A DNA stretch of 21,931 bases from Saccoglossus kowalevskii (Eukaryota > Hemichordata > Enteropneusta > Harrimaniidae), in contig NW_003142308.1 in assembly GCF_000003605.2 (NCBI RefSeq), positions 441,766 through 463,696 on the forward strand, given 5' to 3'. The notes beneath the pieces were generated by a model. It worked only from the letters and a program-made list of their open reading frames with translations. It made no database searches and was not told where the DNA came from. Positions 8,118 to 21,742 of this stretch are shown piece by piece (the first letter of the stretch is position 1; each line of letters opens with the position of its first letter). A program made the position numbers and the translations under genes.

Positions 8118-8576
8118 TTGGCAGTTTCCTTGTATTAGGAATACAGTTGTACAAGGAAGTTTATCCAAACAGACACAATACTGACTCTTTTACATATTTG
8201 CAGATCTGCATACTTGTCATATTACCTGTTGTACTTGTTGTTCATGACGCTGCATCGCATGCGTGGAATCGACGTAACGATTTTTGCGTGTCAATTTAGC
8301 TTTTTTCAACAAATAATTCATTGTTTTCTCCCGGGAAAACGTCGTCAACCTTATTTTATTAACCTGAACATTGTCTTGACAGCGCAAATTACACCTAAAT
8401 AATAAGTGTCTCTGGTTGATTTCTGGCACCCAAAATTGACTAAGAATGACCTGGTGATCCGAAATTGACCACGCATGAAAATACTGCCGCCTACGGCGGG
8501 TTCCGGGATCATTGCGTCTAGCGTCATATATATGGGGTACCTCTATTCCACGGCCTGTTTTTAAAACTCAGTTTAA
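8118..8576. other. Mostly non-coding, one CG-rich hairpin
   Basis: Overlapping short frames on both strands (8114-8429) have no recognisable features. At about 8486-8501 a short perfect stem, CCGCC pairing with GGCGG around a two- to three-base loop, stands out in the AT-rich setting. TTAA words near 8561 and 8573 could be the left target site of the piggyBac element. Confidence 0.4.
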
Positions 8577-8879
8577 TATGGAGTTGCTCAATAAGCAATG
8601 CAACAGATAAAGCTGACACACTCTCTGCACCAAGTACAAGTTGCTATGTTTACCAAGAACCAATTGTGTTTTCTACCAAGTTCAAATCAGTATGCAAAGG
8701 TCATCTGCCCCTCCCTAAGGGGTGCCTCAATATCTAGGCTAATTTTACAAGGGAGTCCAAAAAGTAAACATACTTAGCATACTTTTGCAGTGTACAGCAT
8801 TATTTGCCTTTTGCAACTGAAAGATATACACAGCTTTTTGCTGTTCCAACTAGAGATTTTTCCAGCACTGTGCAGACTG

Positions 8880-9360
8880 AGTAAATTGTACTTGGACTAT
8901 GGGCAAACATAGTAAATACTACTTGAGTTGTCTTCAGTACAAATAAGTTGAACTTGGGTTGTCTGCACTACACATAAGTTGAACTTGGGTTGTCTGCACT
9001 ACACATAAGTTGAACTTGGGTTGTCTGCACTACAGATAAGTTGAACTTGGATTGTCTGCACTACAAATAAGTTGAACTTGGGTTGTCTGCACTACAAATA
9101 AGTTGAACTTGGGTTGTCTCCACTACAAATAAGTTGAACTTGGGTTGTCTGCACTACAAATAAGTTGAACTTAAACGATTAGGAAACTGATTGTATTACA
9201 CTTGAGTTGTCTACACTACAAATAAATTCAACTTGGATGGTCAAAATAACTGATTGAGTTTGACTTGGGTGATTCTATACTACAAGTAAATTGAATGTAG
9301 ACAATCAAGAAACTTAGCAAGTTACACTTGAGCTTGTGCAAATAGAAATAAAGCAACCTT
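8880..9360 (+). repeat. 31-bp tandem repeat array, forward orientation
   Basis: About 15-16 units. The word CTTGGG or a variant starts at 8891, 8922, 8953, then every 31 bases to 9170, and continues at 9201, 9232, 9264, 9295 and 9327. The core of each unit is ACTACAAATAAGTTGAACTT. The middle units are nearly identical, while the outer ones are diverged, a pattern typical of recent expansion or homogenisation in the centre. There are no unique spacers between units. Thirty-one bases is about three helical turns. Confidence 0.92.
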
Positions 9361-9638
9361 TGTTTTCATAAAAGAAGGCAGATGAGCTTGGTTGTTTGCT
9401 TTGCAAATAAACAACCATATTATATAACTTGGGTGACCATGAAAGCTAACTACATGTACAATATACTAGGATATTCATAATTTACGTATAAATGCTGTAT
9501 ATGACTTGCCTCCACAACATTTCCTGTAAATCAGATTATCATACTACATTTGATAAAATCAATGAGTAAATGAATTGATATCATACTTTCGAATTATGGG
9601 CTAATAGTCTTCACTTGTTACTGTCATTGCAGTGCATG
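9361..9638 (+). other. Intron-like or deleted interior with acceptor-like end
   Basis: No coding character. It ends with TTGTTACTGTCATTGCAG at 9616-9633, which looks like a 3' splice site just before the region that becomes transposase-like. It is either a genuine intron of the element or the scar of an internal deletion. Confidence 0.35.
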
Positions 9639-9686
9639 GTTCTACAGACTGTTACTCTTGCATGAAAAATGACTCTCCGAGATATA

Positions 9687-10175
9687 GCTTCATTGAATAT
9701 AACTAAACAAGAACATGATCTCATTACAGAATTGTCTAAGAATAGATCTGGCAAAGTGAGGGTGAAGAAGCACTTCCCAACGTCAGGCCCACAAATGGTG
9801 GAAGTATGTCTTCTTCTACTTATTAGATACTGCCATTTGCAACAGCTACATTATCTATAAAGAAGTAGTTGATGAGAAGAAAACGCATAAAGCATTCCAA
9901 GTAGAAGTTGGTTGTGCTATGATCGGTGGCTTTTGCCAGAGAGTGACAACTGCTAAACCAGTTCTCAATACATACCAAAATCATCACCTGGTTAAAGGAG
10001 AGGGCAGAGGTGCTATAGTTGTAGAATGTGCATTAAGATAGGAAGGAAAACTCAGAAGGGCCACTACGTGCACAGCGTCTACAAATGCAATGAATGTGGA
10101 ATTTCCTTGTGTCGTGATTGCTTCCTTCCATATCACCATGAAATAACATGTAATGCAGGCAAAGGGCAGAAGTGA
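9687..10175 (+). pseudogene. piggyBac transposase, C-terminal fragment, broken
   Basis: piggyBac enzymes cut and paste DNA at TTAA sites with a DDD catalytic core. Only the region after the core is present. In one frame, LNKNM (near 9706) recalls the family's YNKxMGGVD signature. After two in-frame stops come RQAHKWWKYVFFYLLD (9784-9831), then NSYIIYKE and a FQVEVGCAMIGGF helix, all typical of the segment after the third catalytic Asp. That frame ends at TAG 10039-10041. A one-base shift is then needed to reach the cysteine-rich domain (10029-10172), with YKCNECGISLCRDCF-PYH, matching the family's C-terminal zinc-binding domain. It ends at TGA 10173-10175. The catalytic aspartates and N-terminus are missing, so it cannot be active. 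Confidence 0.8.
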
Positions 10176-10324
10176 CACAAACAGAAACAACTGATCAAGC
10201 AGAAGCAAGGTGGCTGTGGGAACAAAGAAGAGATGCAGGAGGACAACAAAGCAGAAGAACCCCTGCAATTGCAAGAGGTGGATCAAGAGGAAGACAAAGA
10301 GGAAGAGGAAATCGTGGAAAATAA
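10172..10324 (+). pseudogene. RG-rich tail frame behind the transposase zinc domain
   Basis: In the third frame, overlapping the end of the zinc domain, an open stretch reads through to TAA at 10322-10324 and ends in repeated Arg-Gly steps (ARGGSRGRQRGRGNRGK). The composition is too orderly for random AT-rich DNA. It may be the original C-terminal tail, reached through another frameshift. The complementary strand is also open here (9984-10286), but that protein looks like an antisense by-product. Confidence 0.4.
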
Positions 10325-10375
10325 AGACTAGTTGTTATATAGTGTGGGCCCCAGGGTTTGGTGGTTTATGTAGTG

Positions 10376-10443
10376 GTATAGTATAGTATAAGTATATAAC
10401 TGTTCAATGCATAGATGCATGTAAGTGACATATATATATATAT
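10376..10443 (+). repeat. Short AGTAT and TA microsatellites
   Basis: A TATAG/AGTAT-type run at about 10376-10400 and a (TA)n run at about 10428-10444, separated by unique sequence. They lie between the transposase remnant and the second 31-bp array. Confidence 0.75.
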
Positions 10444-10572
10444 TGTATTTCACAGGATTAGTACAAAGAAGACAAAAGATTTATAATATACTTTGTTGTC
10501 AACTGAAGTTCTTCTTTGCACTCCCGGTAACCAGACTTTCCATAGTCTGATTGCTGGAAATAATGTGGAGCC

Positions 10573-10910
10573 AAGTACATGTATAATTTAGTTGTAGTCA
10601 ATAGACCCCGAAGTTCAATTTAGTTGTAGTCACTGTCAGCCAAGTGTAATTTATTTGTAATTATCAGAACCCTAAGTTGAATTTATTTGTAGTAACCAAC
10701 TTCCAAGTTGAATTTATTTGTAGTGACAAACTCCCAAGTTCAATTTATTTGTAGTGACAAACTCCCAAGTTGAATTTATTTGTATTGACCAACTCCCAAG
10801 TTCAATTTATTTGTAGTGACCAACAACCAAGTTGAATTTATTTGTAGTGACCAACTCCCAAGTTCAATTCATTTGTAGTCAGTCCTATACCCAAGTACAA
10901 CTTACTATGC
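10573..10910 (-). repeat. 31-bp tandem repeat array, inverted relative to 8880-9360
   Basis: Ten to eleven units. AAGTTGAATTT or AAGTTCAATTT starts at 10611, 10642, 10674, 10705, 10736, 10767, 10798, 10829 and 10860, with degenerate units at 10573 and 10893. Read on the minus strand, the unit core is ACTACAAATAAATTCAACTT, against ACTACAAATAAGTTGAACTT in the left array. Same period, same core, opposite orientation: the two arrays are the inverted arms of one element. Confidence 0.92.
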
Positions 10911-11045
10911 ACAGCATATGTATCACGTTACAGCAGATTTGATCTTTGCAACTGATTAACTTAGACTTGGTACATATTGGGTATTGCCTTGTGGGAAAAA
11001 GAGGATTAGCTGATGGAAACATATACTACACGTGATCTCAGCTAA

Positions 11046-13210: not shown

Positions 13211-13932
13211 GTATCCTAAATTTGTAGCAGGAGATACATTTGCAAATTAGTTTTAGTCAAAATATGTGACTGCCTAAAAGTACCATTACTCTTGTTCAAA
13301 TTTCAATTCACTCGGCAAGTATAATCATGTACCCAAAGGGTAAAATATCGTACTTCTAAATATTGTTTATTTCTGCTATGTTTCGAAAAACGCTACTCCT
13401 GAACGCATATGGGGTGTGGAAATACCGATTTTGATTTCAGAAACGAATCAAAATAAATTGCAGTTATGTAATAACGTGGAATAATTCATTTTCACTGAAA
13501 ACATTTTTTTCCGCTAAAATTTTATATATTTTGGCGTGAATGATTGTTAAGTACGTATATATTTTATCATTCTATGAATATTCCAATACAAATATATACG
13601 GACAATTGTTTTAATGACTTTATTTTCATGTATTACATAATTAATAAATCATTCAAGTAAATAATTAATACCCCCTCCCCAATTTGCTGAAAATGTTCAC
13701 ATATTGTTGGAATTGTATTGTATTGTCTACAGTAATAAGACAGTAGTAATACATATTGCAAATATTTTTTTCTATCACAAATAACTCCATACAACTTTAT
13801 ATTGATAAACTAATATCCCAAAACTTTGATTTCGAAATAGAGGCGAGTTTCCAACTGTCATGTTCAAGTATTAAAATATTGATCGTAACAGACGATATTA
13901 TTGGTATTACCTTCAATAAATACAATTGTGTT
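13211..13932. other. AT-rich non-coding DNA, no gene seen
   Basis: Only short AT-rich frames occur, such as 13756-13941, with no protein character. A small C-rich patch lies near 13671-13680. No repeats are obvious. Confidence 0.55.
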
Positions 13933-14055
13933 ATTATCTGAGACGAATAGCGGGAATGGCGATATTATCACATATTATCTGAGATGAATAGCGGGAATGG
14001 CGATATTATCACATATTATCTGAGACGAATAGCGGGAATGGCACATATTCACATA
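13933..14055 (+). repeat. 41-bp tandem repeat, three units
   Basis: ATTATCTGAGACGAATAG starts at 13933, 13974 and 14015, a step of exactly 41. The first two units are complete and differ by about one base (GAGACG versus GAGATG). The third keeps the first part and then degenerates into CACATATTCACATATCACATATT. The high identity means recent duplication. Confidence 0.9.
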
Positions 14056-14117
14056 TCACATATTAAAGACTGTGCATAAGCTGGACTAATGGGTATTGCA
14101 TAGTTGAATAACTTACT

Positions 14118-14528: not shown

Positions 14529-15772
14529 GTGATACAGGCTTCAATCATCTTTCTGTGAGACTTGTATTAACTGCTCTGCGATCTCCTACACTCAGCGGTC
14601 ACCGCAAGAATAACAGCGTTCCCTGATAGAATTTTTATTTATCCTGCTACAATGTGCCAAACAAGACTGCTTTTACATAAACTGCCTACTTAGAGATGCC
14701 CGATTCTCTGAAAAAAACACCAGTTGATAAGCACATAACTCGATTAAGTTTAAAAGACAAATCACAAATAATGCACTAACATGCATGCTGGATACGTTTT
14801 GATACGGCATTTTATGTGTGTGTGAACAGTACTTAGAGAAAATCAAATAATGTCGCATTACTTTCAGACTGTATAACAATAGTTACCGAAATATTGCAAT
14901 GACATTGAAAGTTCATGTCGAAATGATATGGTAATATAACTAATAATTCCGTAATGTATGTAGTTATGACACTCAGAGTTAGTTAATGGAACGTGGCATA
15001 CTCTTGATTTTCCTTTTTTGAACAATATATATCGAATTTGTGCGAACAAGAACGCATGCATTTTTTTCTATCTTTACATTATTAGCAAAAATAAAGTAAA
15101 GTCCCCTGTAATCAGAACAATCACTAAATAGTAACAAATGGTTAAAGAGAGAACAATCAGGTTGTAACCAGATCACGCTACATGTCCAGTCATTGTGACT
15201 GTACCATGTGATCTGATGAGTGCCACTCCACCACTGGATCTCAAAATACCAAAATCAATGTAATAAGATATGTGATTAAAGAATATATCACAAATAGTTG
15301 AAATATCTAAATGGTATTACTAACACAGCGAGGGATAAAACTGATGAAGCTTGAAAAAAAAAAGTTGAGTCATCATACTATTTACCGCGGGACGATTTCA
15401 CTCGAAGCAATCCGACTTTAAGACCCGATAAGAAATTGCGGTAATGAGTGAAATTCCCACACTGAGTGTCATTTAGAAAGTATCTTATGGCTTGGGCTAT
15501 ACAACATTGTATAATGTAATATCGTAATTAATAGCAAGTGAAAGTTAATTTCTTCTTTTTTTTCATGGAATTTGCACTATTGTTGCAAATGCCATTTTAG
15601 TTGTGTACATTTATACATGCATCTATAAAAATGTCTTTACTATTTCAATTAATGTATTTTGGAGACTTTGTTATGAAACTCACAAACTGTATGCAGTTGA
15701 AGATAACTTGGTACGTCACTACTGCAATGCAAATACGGATATGAGCGATGATAAATGAGCACTGTTTTTATC

Positions 15773-15801
15773 TATAAATAAATAGATAAATAAATAAATT
15801 G
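15773..15801 (+). repeat. AATA microsatellite, longer than in the other arm
   Basis: ATAAATA-type tetranucleotide repeats, interrupted by one GATA. The matching site in the right arm (about 20521-20536) is roughly 12 bases shorter, so the array changed length after the arms separated. Confidence 0.8.
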
Positions 15802-16431
15802 CCTAAAAGCATTTGGGCACTTTGACGAGGTATCTACACACTGCGCCACGTTAAACAGAGCTGAGTGTTATTTATATCATTTCAATGCAACTGCCCTACT
15901 TGATCCGTTCCACAAACTTTAATTGCAGACAAAAAAATGTGTCAAGCGTGTAGTGGATAACACGGTAAGGTCGTATTATCCATTCTCATCAGGTACACCC
16001 CTAGGACTGTGTTTTTGCATTATCAAGTGTGGTTGTCGCAATAGCGAGTGGAATATACGTCTACCGTCAGAATGAATGCATGCTCTTAAGTCTCCACCCG
16101 AGGTCTCTTATGATCGTATTAATCTTTAGGTTTGTGTTATCCATCACGCACTGATATTTTAAAACGTGTTGATATACAGGAATAGTATTAAATAAAACTA
16201 AATTTAAGGAGATTGTACTTTTCGATTATGATAAATGGATGTATGTTCTCTCGTATCTTCTTTAAAACTCATTGCTTAAACCTAACATTGTGATGCGTGC
16301 GTCAGTCAGTCTTTTGTTGTAAGTTGCGTTGTGGTTTTGAATTGTCAACTACTAAGAGTGAATATATAACATGTTATTTATTTAGTGTTTAATTTCCTAA
16401 ACTGTATGATAATATAATCCTGCTACAGATT

Positions 16432-16620
16432 TCATCTCAAGACGTTAAGCGCTATGTTGAGCAGGACAATCAGATTGCATAGGAAATAATAAAGACAAAA
16501 TCCTCCAGCTTCCAAACGCCTGCAAATTCAATTCTTACAATCCTTTGGGAAGTACTGTGATTTAACCATATTAGCCATACGCAAATTACCATTTAACAGG
16601 TATCATGTTGTGAGAGATAT
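16432..16620 (+). repeat. Near-identical tract of the left arm
   Basis: Against the reverse complement of 19707-19906 I count about three to five mismatches over roughly 190 bases, well above the rest of the arm. The same tract is one of the best-kept parts of copy C (3195-3365). Shared words include GGACAATCAGATTG, CTGCAAATT, GGGAAGTACT, TTAGCCATACnCAAA and TTTAACAGGTA. It is not open in any frame. Confidence 0.75.
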
Positions 16621-16824
16621 TTAGATGTTTATCGTGTAGTGTAGACAGTGTTGGTATTCTACAGTTCCAGAGCTGATTTTTTCACATTTTGGCAACATTA
16701 GCAGGTGCATCTTCGCCAGCCAAGGACCATTTATTCGGCCGAAGCCTCAACATTAACCCTTGGCAGATTACACCATGAATTAATGTATGTCGCACGCCCT
16801 CAGACGATTATAAGGAATATTAAA

Positions 16825-16899
16825 ATGGCGGAATCAAATAAACGTGTTGCTAGCTTTTTCTCTGAACGAGATTACGTATCATCAAAAGATAGCGCTTAG
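16825..16899 (+). CDS. Short frame starting ATGGCGGAATC, left arm
   Basis: An ATG in AAAATGGCGG context opens 24 codons: MAESNKRVASFFSERDYVSSKDSA, then TAG. The right arm keeps the same first 15 residues on the other strand and then diverges to a stop. The start context fits a transcription-start or initiator signal. No splice donor could be fixed. It may be a first-exon relic of a gene captured in the repeat, or chance. It is convergent with the ZAD-like exon at 16999-17173. Confidence 0.3.
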   Translation: MAESNKRVASFFSERDYVSSKDSA

Positions 16900-16998
16900 T
16901 ACTGTATCTGAGGAAAATGACGTGTTTGCTGCAAACACAGTCCCTCGTCCCTCAACTGTGTTGCAAGGAAGACCGAATCTGGCAAGTCGATATGTTAC

Positions 16999-17173
16999 CA
17001 GTTTCGACAGTTTTGTCAGTTTACTAAAACACAGTTGGCACAAATATTTAGACATTCCATCGTCCTCATTCACTTGCCCACAAATAATTCTCAACATTTG
17101 AATAAGAAATTTTAGAAACTTGTCAACGAATATAGTCCTCCTGTTCTTGACTCCCGATGAATCAGCGTATTGA
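16999..17173 (-). pseudogene. ZAD-like zinc-binding exon, left arm
   Basis: The minus frame is open from about 17244 to 16882. It contains GVKNRRTIFVDKF, then IICGQVNEDDGMSKYLCQLCFSKLTKLSKL, followed by a GTAACA donor at 16998 downward. DDG-x(4)-LCxxC-x2-KL matches the second half of ZAD (zf-AD) and related domains, which have a C-x2-C pair, a hydrophobic middle and a second C-x2-C pair, and which mediate protein-protein contact in many zinc-finger and transposon-derived proteins. The expected first C-x2-C pair is not evident; only SCQYADSSG lies upstream. No further zinc fingers or exons are visible, so it is a fragment. The right arm carries the homologue, with the same donor. Confidence 0.5.
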
Positions 17174-19121: not shown

Positions 19122-19298
19122 GGGCTTTACGCTGATTCAACGGGGGTCAAGAACAGGAGGTCTATATTCGTTGACAGGTTTCCAAATTTTCTTATTCCAA
19201 CGTTGAAAACTGTTTGTGGGCAAGTGAATGAGGACGATGGGATGTCTAAATATTTGTGCAAACTGTGTTCTAGTAAACTGACAAAACTGCTGAAACAG
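19122..19298 (+). pseudogene. ZAD-like zinc-binding exon, right arm
   Basis: Counterpart of 16999-17173. The frame opens after a TGA at 19119-19121 and reads GVKNRRSIFVDRF, then TVCGQVNEDDGMSKYLCKLCSSKLTKLLKQ, followed by GTAATA at 19299. The key Cys residues, the DDG and the donor position are the same in both arms, while about ten residues differ. Most retained positions are those expected to matter for a ZAD-type fold, which hints at past selection. The preceding ACAATGGCGGCGTGA (19108-19121) would start and stop immediately before it, so no start is assigned. No further exon is seen. Confidence 0.5.
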
Positions 19299-19397
19299 GT
19301 AATATATCGACTTGACTGTGTCAGTCGAGGGACTGTGTTTGCAACAAACACATCATTTTCCTTAGATACAGCACTAAGCACTTTCTTTTGATGATCA

Positions 19398-19448
19398 TTA
19401 AGCTCGTTCAGAGAAAAAGCTAGCAACACGTTTATTTGATTCCGCCAT
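19398..19448 (-). CDS. Short frame starting ATGGCGGAATC, right arm
   Basis: The minus-strand frame is MAESNKRVASFFSERA, then TAA. It matches the left-arm frame (16825-16899) for 15 residues and then ends early. A different minus frame stays open across the region (19127-19483), antisense to the ZAD-like exon, and is probably a by-product. Unlike the left arm, this copy has upstream promoter-like motifs (19489-19507). Confidence 0.3.
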   Translation of the reverse strand: MAESNKRVASFFSERA

Positions 19449-19488
19449 TTTAATTTTACCAAGTAATGTGTAGTTTCTTTCATGAGTT

Positions 19489-19507
19489 CTGATTGGATAA
19501 TGCAAAT
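19489..19507 (-). promoter_or_regulatory. CCAAT box and octamer upstream of ATGGCGG
   Basis: On the minus strand ATTTGCAT (19507-19500, an exact Oct-type octamer) is followed by CCAATCAG (19496-19489, the NF-Y-type CCAAT box). The ATG at 19448 lies about 41 bases further downstream. The left arm has a deletion that removes both. The combination resembles a compact animal promoter, but the words are short and function is inferred. Confidence 0.4.
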
Positions 19508-19706
19508 GAGCCGAAGTGTATCTTATAATCGTCTGGCGTGCGACATACAGTAAATCATGGTGAAATCTGCCAAGGATTAATGTTGAAGCTTCGGCCGAAT
19601 AAATGGTCCTTGGCTGCCGAAGTTGCACCTGCTAATGCTGTCCAAATGTGAAAAAATCAGCTCTGGAACTGTAGAATACCAACAGTGTCTACACTACGCG
19701 ATATAC

Positions 19707-19906
19707 ATCTAATTATCTCTCACAACATGATACCTGTTAAATGGTAATTTGCGTATGGCTAATATGGTTAAATCACAGTACTTCCCAAAGGATTGAAAGA
19801 ATTGAATTTGCAGGCGTTTTGAAGCTGGAGGATTTTGTCTTTATTATTTCCTATGCAATCTGATTGTCCTGCTCAACATAGCGCTTAACGTCTTGAGATG
19901 AAATCT
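19707..19906 (-). repeat. Near-identical tract of the right arm
   Basis: Partner of 16432-16620. See that entry for shared words. The identity drops clearly on both sides: beyond 19906 indels of 10-30 bases appear within 100 bases. Confidence 0.75.
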
Positions 19907-21742
19907 TTAACATGATTATAGTGTCATACAGTTTAGGAAATTAAAAGCTAAATAAATAACAAATTATATATCGATCCATGTTTAAATTCATTCACTATAA
20001 GTAATTTACAATTCAAAACCACAAAGCAACTTACAACAAAAGACTGACTGACGCACGCATCACAATGTTAGGTTTAAGCAATGAGTTTTAAAGAAGATAC
20101 GAGGAGAACATACGAAAAATACAATCTCCTTAAATTGAGTTTTATTTAATACTATTCCTGTATATCCGCATGTTTTAAAATATCAGTGCGTGATGGGAAA
20201 CACAAACCTAAAGATTAAAACGATCATAAGAGACCTCAGGTGTATTAATTCCGACGGTAGACGTATATTCCACTCGCTATTGCAACAACCACACTTGATA
20301 AGCAAAAACACAGTCCTAGGGGTGTATCTGATGATAATGGATAATATGACCTCACCGTGTTATCGACTACACGCTTGACCAATTTCTTTGTCTTCTATTA
20401 AAGCTTCTGGAACTGATCAAGTAGGGCAGTTGCATTGAAATGATATAAATAACACTCAGCTCTGTTTAACAGGGTGCAGTGTGTAGATACCTCGTCAAAG
20501 TGCCCAAATGCTTTTAGGCAATTTATTTATTCATAGATAAAAACAGTGCTCACTTATCATCGATCATATCCGTATTTACATTGCAGTAGTGAAGTATCTA
20601 ATTATGTTCAACTGCATACAGTTTGTGAATTCCATAACAAAGTCTCCAAAATACATTAATTTAAATAATTGAAGGAAAGAAAAAAGAAATTAACTTTCAC
20701 TTGCTATTAATTACGATATTGCATTATACAATGTGGTATAGCCCGAACCATAAGATAGTTTCTGAATGGCACACAGTGTGGGAATTTCACTTCATTACCG
20801 CAATTTCTTATCGGGTCTTAAAGTCGGGTTGCTTCGAGTGAAATCGTTTCGCGGTACATAGTATGATGACTCAAGCTTCATCAGTTTTATCCCTTGGTGT
20901 GTTAGTAATACCATTCAGATGTTTCAACTATTTGTGATATATTCTTTAATCTCATATCTTATTACATTGATTTTGGTATTTTGAGATCCAGTGGTGGAGT
21001 GGCACTCATCAGATCACATGGCACAGTTACAAAGACTTGGTATGTAGCGTGATCTAGTTACAACCTGATTTTACCCACATGTTACTATTTAGTGATTGTT
21101 CTGATTACAGGGGCGTTTACAATTTCCTTTATTTTTGCTAATAATGTAAAGATAGTAAAATATGCATGCTTTCGCGTTCGCGCAAATTCGAGATATATGG
21201 TTCAGAAAAGGAAAATCCGGTGTATGCCACATTCCATTACTAACCCTGAGTGTCATAACTACATACATTACGGAATTATTAGTTATATTACCATATCATT
21301 TTAACATGAACTTTCAATGTCATTGCATTATTTCGGTAACTATTGTTATACAGTGTGAAAGTAATGCAACATTATTTGATTTTCTCTAAGTACTGTTCAC
21401 ACACATATAAAGTGCCGTATAAAATCGTACTTCAAAGAATAGTGACGAATATATTTAATTCGTGCAAATAATTTGAGTTACCAGCAGCGTATTTGCAATC
21501 CTGTGAAATGAAAGCATGTTGTAATCAACGTATAATGAAAAGTGATCACGCAATTATTACGAATATCCAGCATGCATTTTGGTGCATTATTTTTGATTTG
21601 TCTTTTAAACTTAAATCGATTTATGTGCTTATCAACTGTTTTTTTGTGTTTTTTTTCAGAGAATTAGGCATCCCTAAGTAGGCAGTTTATGTAAGCAGTC
21701 TTGTTTAGCACATTGGTACAGGAAAAATATAAATTCTATCAA

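What the first reader, a model, noticed from the sequence alone, without database searches (positions are those of the whole stretch)
8577..11045. piggyBac remnant flanked by inverted 31-bp satellite-like arrays
Seen: two arrays with the same 31-base period and the same ACTACAAATAA-rich core, about 15 and 10 units, in opposite orientation around a broken piggyBac C-terminus. Inverted similarity continues outside the arrays. Known: piggyBac ends are normally short terminal repeats with a small internal repeat, not long arrays. Inferred: this is either a piggyBac lineage with expanded subterminal binding sites, or an element whose ends seeded a minisatellite. Thirty-one bases is about three helical turns, so each unit would face the same side, as expected for a row of protein-binding sites.
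Basis: partly seen in the sequence, partly recalled or inferred. Interest (0 to 1): 0.75.

Follow-up and report, generated by a model that had tools for sequence, protein, structure and literature searches.

The report
PiggyBac family with paired 31-bp arrays
A decayed jumping gene of the piggyBac type carries, just inside each end, a row of 31-base repeats facing inward like mirror images, and most of the few relatives found in the same genome share them, so the rows are part of the element and are probably multiplied landing sites for its own enzyme.

Summary
Two 31-bp arrays of one unit, in opposite orientation, flank a transposase remnant. The remnant is a piggyBac C-terminus plus zinc finger whose middle is deleted.

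Relatives in the host assembly (572 Mb, unnamed) correct the ends. The tip is TTAA^TCCTCTTTCTCCC; the window's right tip is 11005, not 11045, and the left tip about 8540-8554.

Seven right and five left ends of the family were found. A 31- or 62-bp period beats all nulls on 5 of 7 right and 4 of 5 left ends. Orientation is mirror-like throughout. A search with the left array found only family copies, but would miss diverged arrays. Eight other places with this terminal pattern showed no such array, two of them barely readable.

Within the window the 22-bp core is shared by both arrays, the linker not. In four of six right ends examined the array keeps one phase with a conserved subterminal site. 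Best reading: amplified transposase-binding sites, as in Galileo. Binding is untested.

The parts
8550..11005 (+). non-autonomous piggyBac-type element (left tip uncertain, 8540-8554)
   Evidence: right tip by terminal-repeat match and by alignment with 3 other right ends; left tip by pairwise alignment to relatives' tips, which gives two placements
10993..11005 (-). right terminal inverted repeat; 11006-11009 TTAG looks like a decayed TTAA target site
   Evidence: 2 mismatches to TTAATCCTCTTTCTCCC over 17 bp
8752..8799 (+). left-end block that looks conserved in the 5 left ends aligned
   Evidence: alignment, judged by eye; function unknown
8874..9309 (+). left 31-bp array, 13 units including degenerate ones; the best run is 8936-9183 (8 units)
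8874..8896 (+). left outer site, at a multiple of 31 bp from the good units; likeness to the unit not significant alone (13 of 18, 311 of 5000 nulls as good)
9666..9769 (+). 5' coding remnant of the transposase (frame ending ...SGKVRVKK)
   Evidence: 84.6% DNA identity to C3852 over 9679-9769
9770..9774 (+). junction of the internal deletion of the transposase middle
   Evidence: flanking homologies lie about 960 bp apart in C3852
9775..10038 (+). C-terminal end of the DDE_Tnp_1_7 transposase domain and the stretch after it
   Evidence: PF13843 325-349 of 349; 66% aa identity to C4775 over 80 aa
9996..10172 (+). C-terminal cysteine-rich zinc finger, in another frame from the previous part
   Evidence: PF13842 E=3.7e-4
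10568..10912 (-). right 31-bp array, 11 units on the minus strand including the outer site
10890..10912 (-). right subterminal site (TAAGTTGTACTTGGG on the minus strand), 33 bp from the first unit
   Evidence: 16 of 18 match to the left-array unit, 0 of 5000 Markov nulls as good; phase; a like site in the other right ends compared

Best explanation
The window holds an internally deleted copy of a low-copy piggyBac family whose ends were elaborated into foldback-like ends. A single subterminal recognition site near each end was duplicated inward at a 31-bp step, giving mirror-image arrays of about 6-13 sites. The transposase, probably through the dimer of its C-terminal cysteine-rich domains, would bind the conserved core of each unit, raising end affinity and specificity and helping to pair the two ends. 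Shown: family, arrays, orientation, shared core with differing linker, shared phase in four right ends, copy-number change between two near copies. Inferred: origin by inward duplication, that the transposase is the binder, and that binding promotes rather than restrains transposition.
For: Both-strand scan: units plus-oriented on the left and minus-oriented on the right in the four members that have both sides (window, C3852, C3427:257k, C2921), and matching orientation in C1420, C1233 and the one unit of C3427:189.9k. A period of 31 (62 for the left sides of C3852 and C2921) exceeds all 200 nulls in 9 of 11 regions, regions drawn around units already seen. In the window, with units cut at a fixed 31-bp register, the first 22 positions are 88% and the last 9 positions 27% identical between arrays. 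Across 11 arrays positions 1-23 carry 0.22-1.80 bits, positions 24-31 0.01-0.37; spacing is mostly 31. The right subterminal site matches the unit 16 of 18 (0 of 5000 nulls) and lies at 33+31k bp from the first units in window, C1420, C3852 and C3427:257k, drifting by 1-2 bp further in. The palindrome AAGTNNNACTT occurs 5 times in the 10.2-kb C3852 element and 4 times in the 5.8-kb C3427 element, each time starting within 125 bp of a tip, and 10 times in the window element, 8 of them in the good left units; 0 in the other 19,457 bp of the window. Precedents: piggyBac and piggyBat C-terminal domains bind subterminal palindromes (PMC11707139, passages); [quoted passage not shown]
Against: No binding or transposition data. 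The bit scores are inflated for positions 1-23, because units were picked by likeness to those positions. The palindrome was spotted by eye in tip sequences before it was counted, so its tip enrichment is post hoc; it is not kept in the right-array units of C3852 and C3427 and is absent from the C1233 and C3427:189.9k stretches. The C2921 right units are out of phase with its site (first at 87 bp) and the C1233 units start 2 bp off the common phase and then lose it; window and C1420 are near copies, so phase agreement has few independent cases. L018 R (C2921) and L011 L (C3427:189.9k) do not exceed the period null. C3891, with a related open transposase frame and a similar tip, shows no 31-bp array, so arrays are not needed by all such elements. 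Members share ancestry, so shared orientation is not independent evidence.
Confidence: 0.55

Rival explanations
1. Passive minisatellite: replication slippage or unequal exchange amplified a subterminal segment, and the arrays ride along without function.
For: Homogeneous units in the window's left array and the C1420 right array (95% and 96%), different unit variants amplified in C1420 than in the window, and 13 against 11 right units in these two near copies show slippage-like turnover.
Against: Does not by itself explain arrays of one unit at both ends in mirror orientation in several members, or a linker that differs while core and step are kept. One ancestral inverted duplication could still give the orientation.
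Confidence: 0.28
2. Regulatory arrays: binding sites for a host factor, or for the transposase as brake or enhancer, acting on expression or restraint rather than on pairing of the ends.
For: piggyBat has an inhibitory internal transposase site (PMC11707139, passages); Pokey, another piggyBac element, carries 200-bp repeats upstream of its gene that its authors think most likely act in transcription (PMC3849761, passages).
Against: Arrays pass the period test at five of seven right ends too, in mirror orientation, which a promoter role does not need.
Confidence: 0.13
3. Independent satellite: a pre-existing 31-bp satellite into which a piggyBac element inserted.
For: None found; it would fit the satellite-like look.
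Confidence: 0.02

Closest known systems
piggyBac superfamily (Trichoplusia ni piggyBac, Myotis piggyBat)
   Same: DDE_Tnp_1_7 transposase with C-terminal zinc finger; TTAA next to several tips; 13-bp terminal repeat; palindromes close to the tips (starting 18 bp in on the left of C3852, 42-45 bp in on the right of C3852 and C3427, TTAA included). Published piggyBac 19-bp repeats lie 3 and 31 nt inside the terminal repeat (PMC12324416, passages).
   Different: Tip reads TCCT rather than the CC[C/T]T motif given in PMC2872659; about 6-13 tandem 31-bp units at an end instead of single sites, or the three left-end sites 44 bp apart in piggyBat.
Galileo (P superfamily) and Foldback-like elements including Tetris
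   Same: Mirror-image ends with internal tandem repeats of variable number; in Tetris the repeat shares 37 bp with the outermost part of the terminal repeat; in Galileo transposase sites were shown in the repeats (PMC3688188, PMC4079207, passages).
   Different: Other transposase (Tetris: unknown); repeats of about 140 bp in one Galileo copy (PMC4168063, passages) and about 220 bp in Tetris; outside the arrays the two ends here are hardly inverted repeats.
Pokey (Daphnia piggyBac element)
   Same: piggyBac element carrying internal repeats (PMC3849761, passages).
   Different: 2 to 5 rDNA-derived repeats of about 200 bp in the 5' non-coding region; three short repeats in the 5' and 3' non-coding regions are mentioned there too, not as long arrays in what I read.

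Membership tests
piggyBac superfamily | DDE_Tnp_1_7 transposase with catalytic aspartates | tested here: met
   Window keeps only the last part (E=0.025, under cut-off); family member C1233 has pieces at E=6.6e-11, 0.0014 and 3.6e-5, with D-containing motifs read by eye. Met for the family, not for the window alone.
piggyBac superfamily | C-terminal cysteine-rich zinc-binding domain | tested here: met
   PF13842 E=3.7e-4, 21.4 bits, below the cut-off of 24, in the right place after the core
piggyBac superfamily | TTAA target-site duplication | tested here: inconclusive
   TTAA at the right tip of C3852, C3427:257k and C2921 (the last with a terminal repeat two bases short) and at the left tip of C3427:189.9k; no copy seen with TTAA on both sides (C3852 ATAA/TTAA, C3427:257k TCAA/TTAA); window right TTAG, left lost; C1420 right CTAT on the tip-inward strand
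piggyBac superfamily | short terminal inverted repeat of about 13 bp | tested here: met
   TCCTCTTTCTCCC at both ends of C3852 and C3427:257k, with 0-2 mismatches over the 17-bp pattern; not recognised at the C1233 right end with up to 5 mismatches
piggyBac superfamily | common tip motif CC[C/T]T (typical; I recall that piggyBat lacks it, so not treated as defining) | tested here: not met
   tips read TCCT directly after TTAA
Foldback/Galileo-type ends | long mirror-image ends with internal tandem repeats | tested here: met
   the mirror likeness is in the arrays, hardly outside them
Foldback/Galileo-type ends | transposase sites within the repeats | not testable with these tools
   needs footprinting or EMSA
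Foldback/Galileo-type ends | P- or Mutator-type transposase | tested here: not met
   the family's transposase is PF13843
satellite DNA | arrays away from the element | tested here: inconclusive
   4 places, all in family copies, but the tool skips very common words and the query misses the family's own diverged arrays

The most novel reading that the evidence does not exclude
A piggyBac lineage has replaced single-site end recognition by a helically phased row of transposase sites at both ends, so that its transpososome is a long multi-dimer assembly, a convergent counterpart of Galileo/Foldback ends in an unrelated superfamily. Row length would then tune activity up or down by simple slippage.
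Probability: 0.3. Interest if true: 0.65.

Novelty: new variant of a known kind. Interest (0 to 1): 0.45.

Why it matters
It is an instance of foldback-like, internally repetitive ends in the piggyBac superfamily, where end structure is well studied because piggyBac is a genome-engineering tool. It gives a natural series of site number (about 6 to 13 units per end) for asking whether extra sites help or, as in piggyBat, restrain transposition. It adds to the idea that repetitive ends arise repeatedly by amplifying a subterminal transposase site.

Tried and rejected
Pre-existing satellite: rejected, as tips lie outside the arrays and a search with the left array found only family copies (with the limits told above). 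Outer ends as a long inverted repeat: not convincing, since a same-direction control scored nearly as high. AAGTNNNACTT as a universal unit core: rejected. Viral and prokaryote collections searched for the unit and the peptide: nothing confirmed. Coral CMITE elements (PMC2872659; part 1 of 4 and passages read): no such arrays in what I read. C4775, the most complete open frame related to the window's transposase: no terminal repeat (up to 3 mismatches; one weak 4-mismatch site) and no TRF array of period 31 in 22.7 kb, 5.8 kb of it N, so not shown to be an end-bearing copy. C1233: no left end found up to the contig end. C1420: only the right part can be read, since the sequence inward of it is N.

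In checking this report I found that my first count of right ends in phase (5 of 6) was wrong: one search gives 4 of 6. For this, and because units were picked by the positions then scored, I lowered the best explanation from 0.58 to 0.55 and raised the passive rival from 0.25 to 0.28.

Literature for a piggyBac element with such arrays: the searches listed none that I recognised; most papers were seen only as search listings. Passages were read of PMC11707139, PMC12324416, PMC4079207, PMC3849761, PMC4168063, PMC3688188 and PMC2872659. Repbase was not available, so the family may be catalogued there.

Full report
What is there. The stretch holds two arrays of one 31-bp unit in opposite orientation. 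TRF gives 8921-9172, 8.1 copies, 95% matches, and 10585-10879, 9.5 copies, 82%. The 22-bp core is found 18 times with up to 3 mismatches, 0 expected. Between the arrays lies a broken transposase. Its last DDE-domain residues match PF13843 positions 325-349 of 349 (E=0.025) and its zinc finger PF13842 (E=3.7e-4), in different frames and both under the curated cut-offs; the first piece also matches piggyBat at E=0.033. Each is weak alone; order and relatives make them firm.

Host and relatives. The window is part of an unnamed assembly of 572 Mb in 4,830 contigs. Searching it with the element gave 22 matches on 8 contigs, the left array alone 4 places, a relative's left end 6 matches and a relative's right end 6 matches. 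Together: right ends in the window, C1420, C3852, C3427 (257k), C2921, C1233 and C1550 (seven); left ends in the window, C3852, C3427 (257k), C3427 (189.9k) and C2921 (five). These are lower bounds by the tool's own statement. Pieces without ends lie on C4775 and C4423.

True ends. Homology stops at one point in all four right ends aligned (window, C3427, C3852, C1420), at GGGAGAAAGAGGA or a near form, followed by TTAA or a decayed form. The terminal repeat is TTAA^TCCTCTTTCTCCC. C3852 spans 10,185 bp from ATAA to TTAA, C3427 5,834 bp from TCAA to TTAA. The window's right tip is 11005 with TTAG next to it. Its left tip is eroded, and two alignments place it at about 8540 or 8554. I saw no copy with TTAA on both sides. 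At C1233 homology to the right end of C1550 begins 12 bp from the tip, but no terminal repeat is recognised there with up to 5 mismatches.

The transposase. C1233 keeps pieces of the DDE core (E=6.6e-11, 0.0014, 3.6e-5). The window lost its middle: 5' homology to C3852 ends at 9769 and resumes at about 9775, about 960 bp apart in C3852. C3852 lacks a further stretch that C1233 has, and its zinc finger is split by several kb. So the copies are separate deletion or insertion derivatives. C4775 has a 942-aa open frame, piggyBat E=3.1e-22, but no clear terminal repeat (one site with 4 of 17 mismatches) and no TRF array of period 31 in 22.7 kb, of which 5.8 kb is N.

The arrays across the family. 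Autocorrelation exceeds the largest of 200 Markov nulls in 9 of 11 regions, at lag 31, or at lag 62 for the left sides of C3852 and C2921; the regions were drawn around units already seen. The right side of C2921 and the left side of C3427:189.9k do not pass. C1550 shows no such period and is homologous only to about 180 bp from its tip, where the array would begin. A both-strand scan finds units plus-oriented on left sides and minus-oriented on right sides, seen from the element; one search looked at the expected strand only. In the window, with units cut at a fixed register (8 left, 7 right), positions 1-22 are 88% and positions 23-31 are 27% identical between the arrays. Over 11 arrays positions 1-23 (ACTACAAATRAATTSAACTTGRG) carry 0.22-1.80 bits and positions 24-31 carry 0.01-0.37; since units were picked by likeness to positions 1-23, this contrast is inflated. 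Steps are mostly 31, with 30, 32 and 33 and some larger gaps.

Origin. On the right, a conserved site (TAAGTTGTACTTGGG in the window, minus strand) lies 94-110 bp from the tip in window, C1420, C3852, C3427 and C2921. It matches the window's left-array unit 16 of 18 in the window and C1420, 15 in C3852 and C3427, 13 in C2921; for the window 0 of 5,000 nulls reach 16. The first units stand at 33+31k bp from this site in four of six right ends examined (window, C1420, C3852, C3427), with a drift of 1-2 bp further in. In C1233 the first three stand 2 bp off that phase and later ones lose it; in C2921 they are out of phase, the first at 87 bp. On the left the like site is at a multiple of 31 bp from the good units but not significant by sequence (13 of 18; 311 of 5,000 nulls). 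This fits inward amplification from a subterminal site without proving it. In C1420, 91% identical to the window over 554 bp, other unit variants were amplified, so turnover continued after the copies split. The inner part of the C1420 copy is N.

Palindrome. AAGTNNNACTT occurs 5 times in C3852 and 4 in C3427, each starting within 125 bp of a tip, twice at the right end of C2921, once at that of C1420, 10 times in the window element and 0 in the other 19,457 bp of the window. I saw the motif in the tips first, so this is description rather than a test. Right-array units of C3852 and C3427 lack it, and the C1233 and C3427:189.9k stretches have none.

Controls. The terminal pattern with up to 2 mismatches has 58 sites against 38 for the backward control, so many are noise. 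I looked beyond the tip at 16 of the 58: seven in loci already held, all of this family, and nine fetched. Of the nine, C1550 is a truncated right end of this family. The other eight (C1211, C1694, C2651, C3621, C3786, C643, C2719, C3891) differ beyond the tip; only C3891 is shown to hold a piggyBac transposase. TRF found no 31-bp array in any of the nine, but C3621 gave 190 bp, C2651 816 bp, and C1211 is N after about 130 bp. Seven could be scored: the highest lag-31 value in any 300-bp piece was 0.38, in C2651, where 31 was also the best lag, and in C3891; no nulls were run for these. Family regions score 0.38-0.78, so the weakest family region does not stand out from the controls. C3891 has an open transposase frame 40.5% identical to C4775 over 693 aa. 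Arrays thus look like a feature of this lineage, on few controls.

Mechanism. piggyBac and piggyBat bind subterminal palindromes with paired C-terminal domains, and piggyBat has three such sites on one end, an internal one restraining activity (PMC11707139, passages). Galileo binds a site about 70 bp from its tip and further sites in its tandem repeats (PMC3688188, passages). The present anatomy fits that pattern best. Whether the sites help or restrain is open. Thirty-one bp near three helical turns is arithmetic, not evidence.

Verdict. A real mobile element of a known kind with an unusual end structure shared by most of its found relatives; new variant of a known kind.

Noticed in passing
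window 14624-17169 and 19128-21741: Large inverted duplication, pieces 84-89% identical, about 2 kb apart, with partial further copies between 1859 and 4039.
   Followed up: no
window 13932-14056: 41-bp tandem repeat, 3.1 copies.
   Followed up: no
L016:2508-5333 (C4775): Open 942-aa piggyBac-type frame in which the second catalytic motif reads VYTQ where C1233 and C3891 have YTD, without clear terminal repeats nearby: perhaps a domesticated gene.
   Followed up: partly
L021:2869-6554 minus strand (C4463): Two overlapping open frames of 583 and 660 aa with what look like C2H2 zinc fingers (by eye); the second ends in a PF13843 match: a possible zinc-finger/piggyBac fusion gene.
   Followed up: no
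L010:2053-2542 and L015:6649-7189: 42-bp tandem repeat of 12-13 copies inside the transposase gene region, reading as an acidic repeat like DDGNIEGDDDGIQQ in one frame.
   Followed up: partly
L010:6149-6937: 32-bp array of about 24 copies just outside the left tip of the C3852 element; no clear kinship with the 31-bp unit by eye.
   Followed up: no
L029, 1450-1764 bp inward of its tip; L028, 366-609 bp inward: Other places with the terminal pattern have nearby arrays of 62 bp (5.1 copies, 98%) and 83 bp (3 copies, 93%); whether these lie inside elements is unknown.
   Followed up: no
L025 (C2651), from about 150 bp inward of its tip: Best autocorrelation lag is 31 (0.38) although TRF calls no array; no null was run, so it may be chance or a remnant.
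   Followed up: no
L030 (C3891, 12.7 kb contig): Three piggyBac transposase copies in one short contig, with 148-150-bp tandem repeats after each of the two copies read.
   Followed up: no
window 8752-8799: A block near CAAAAAGTAAACATACTTAGCAT looks conserved in five left ends, outside the arrays (by eye).
   Followed up: partly
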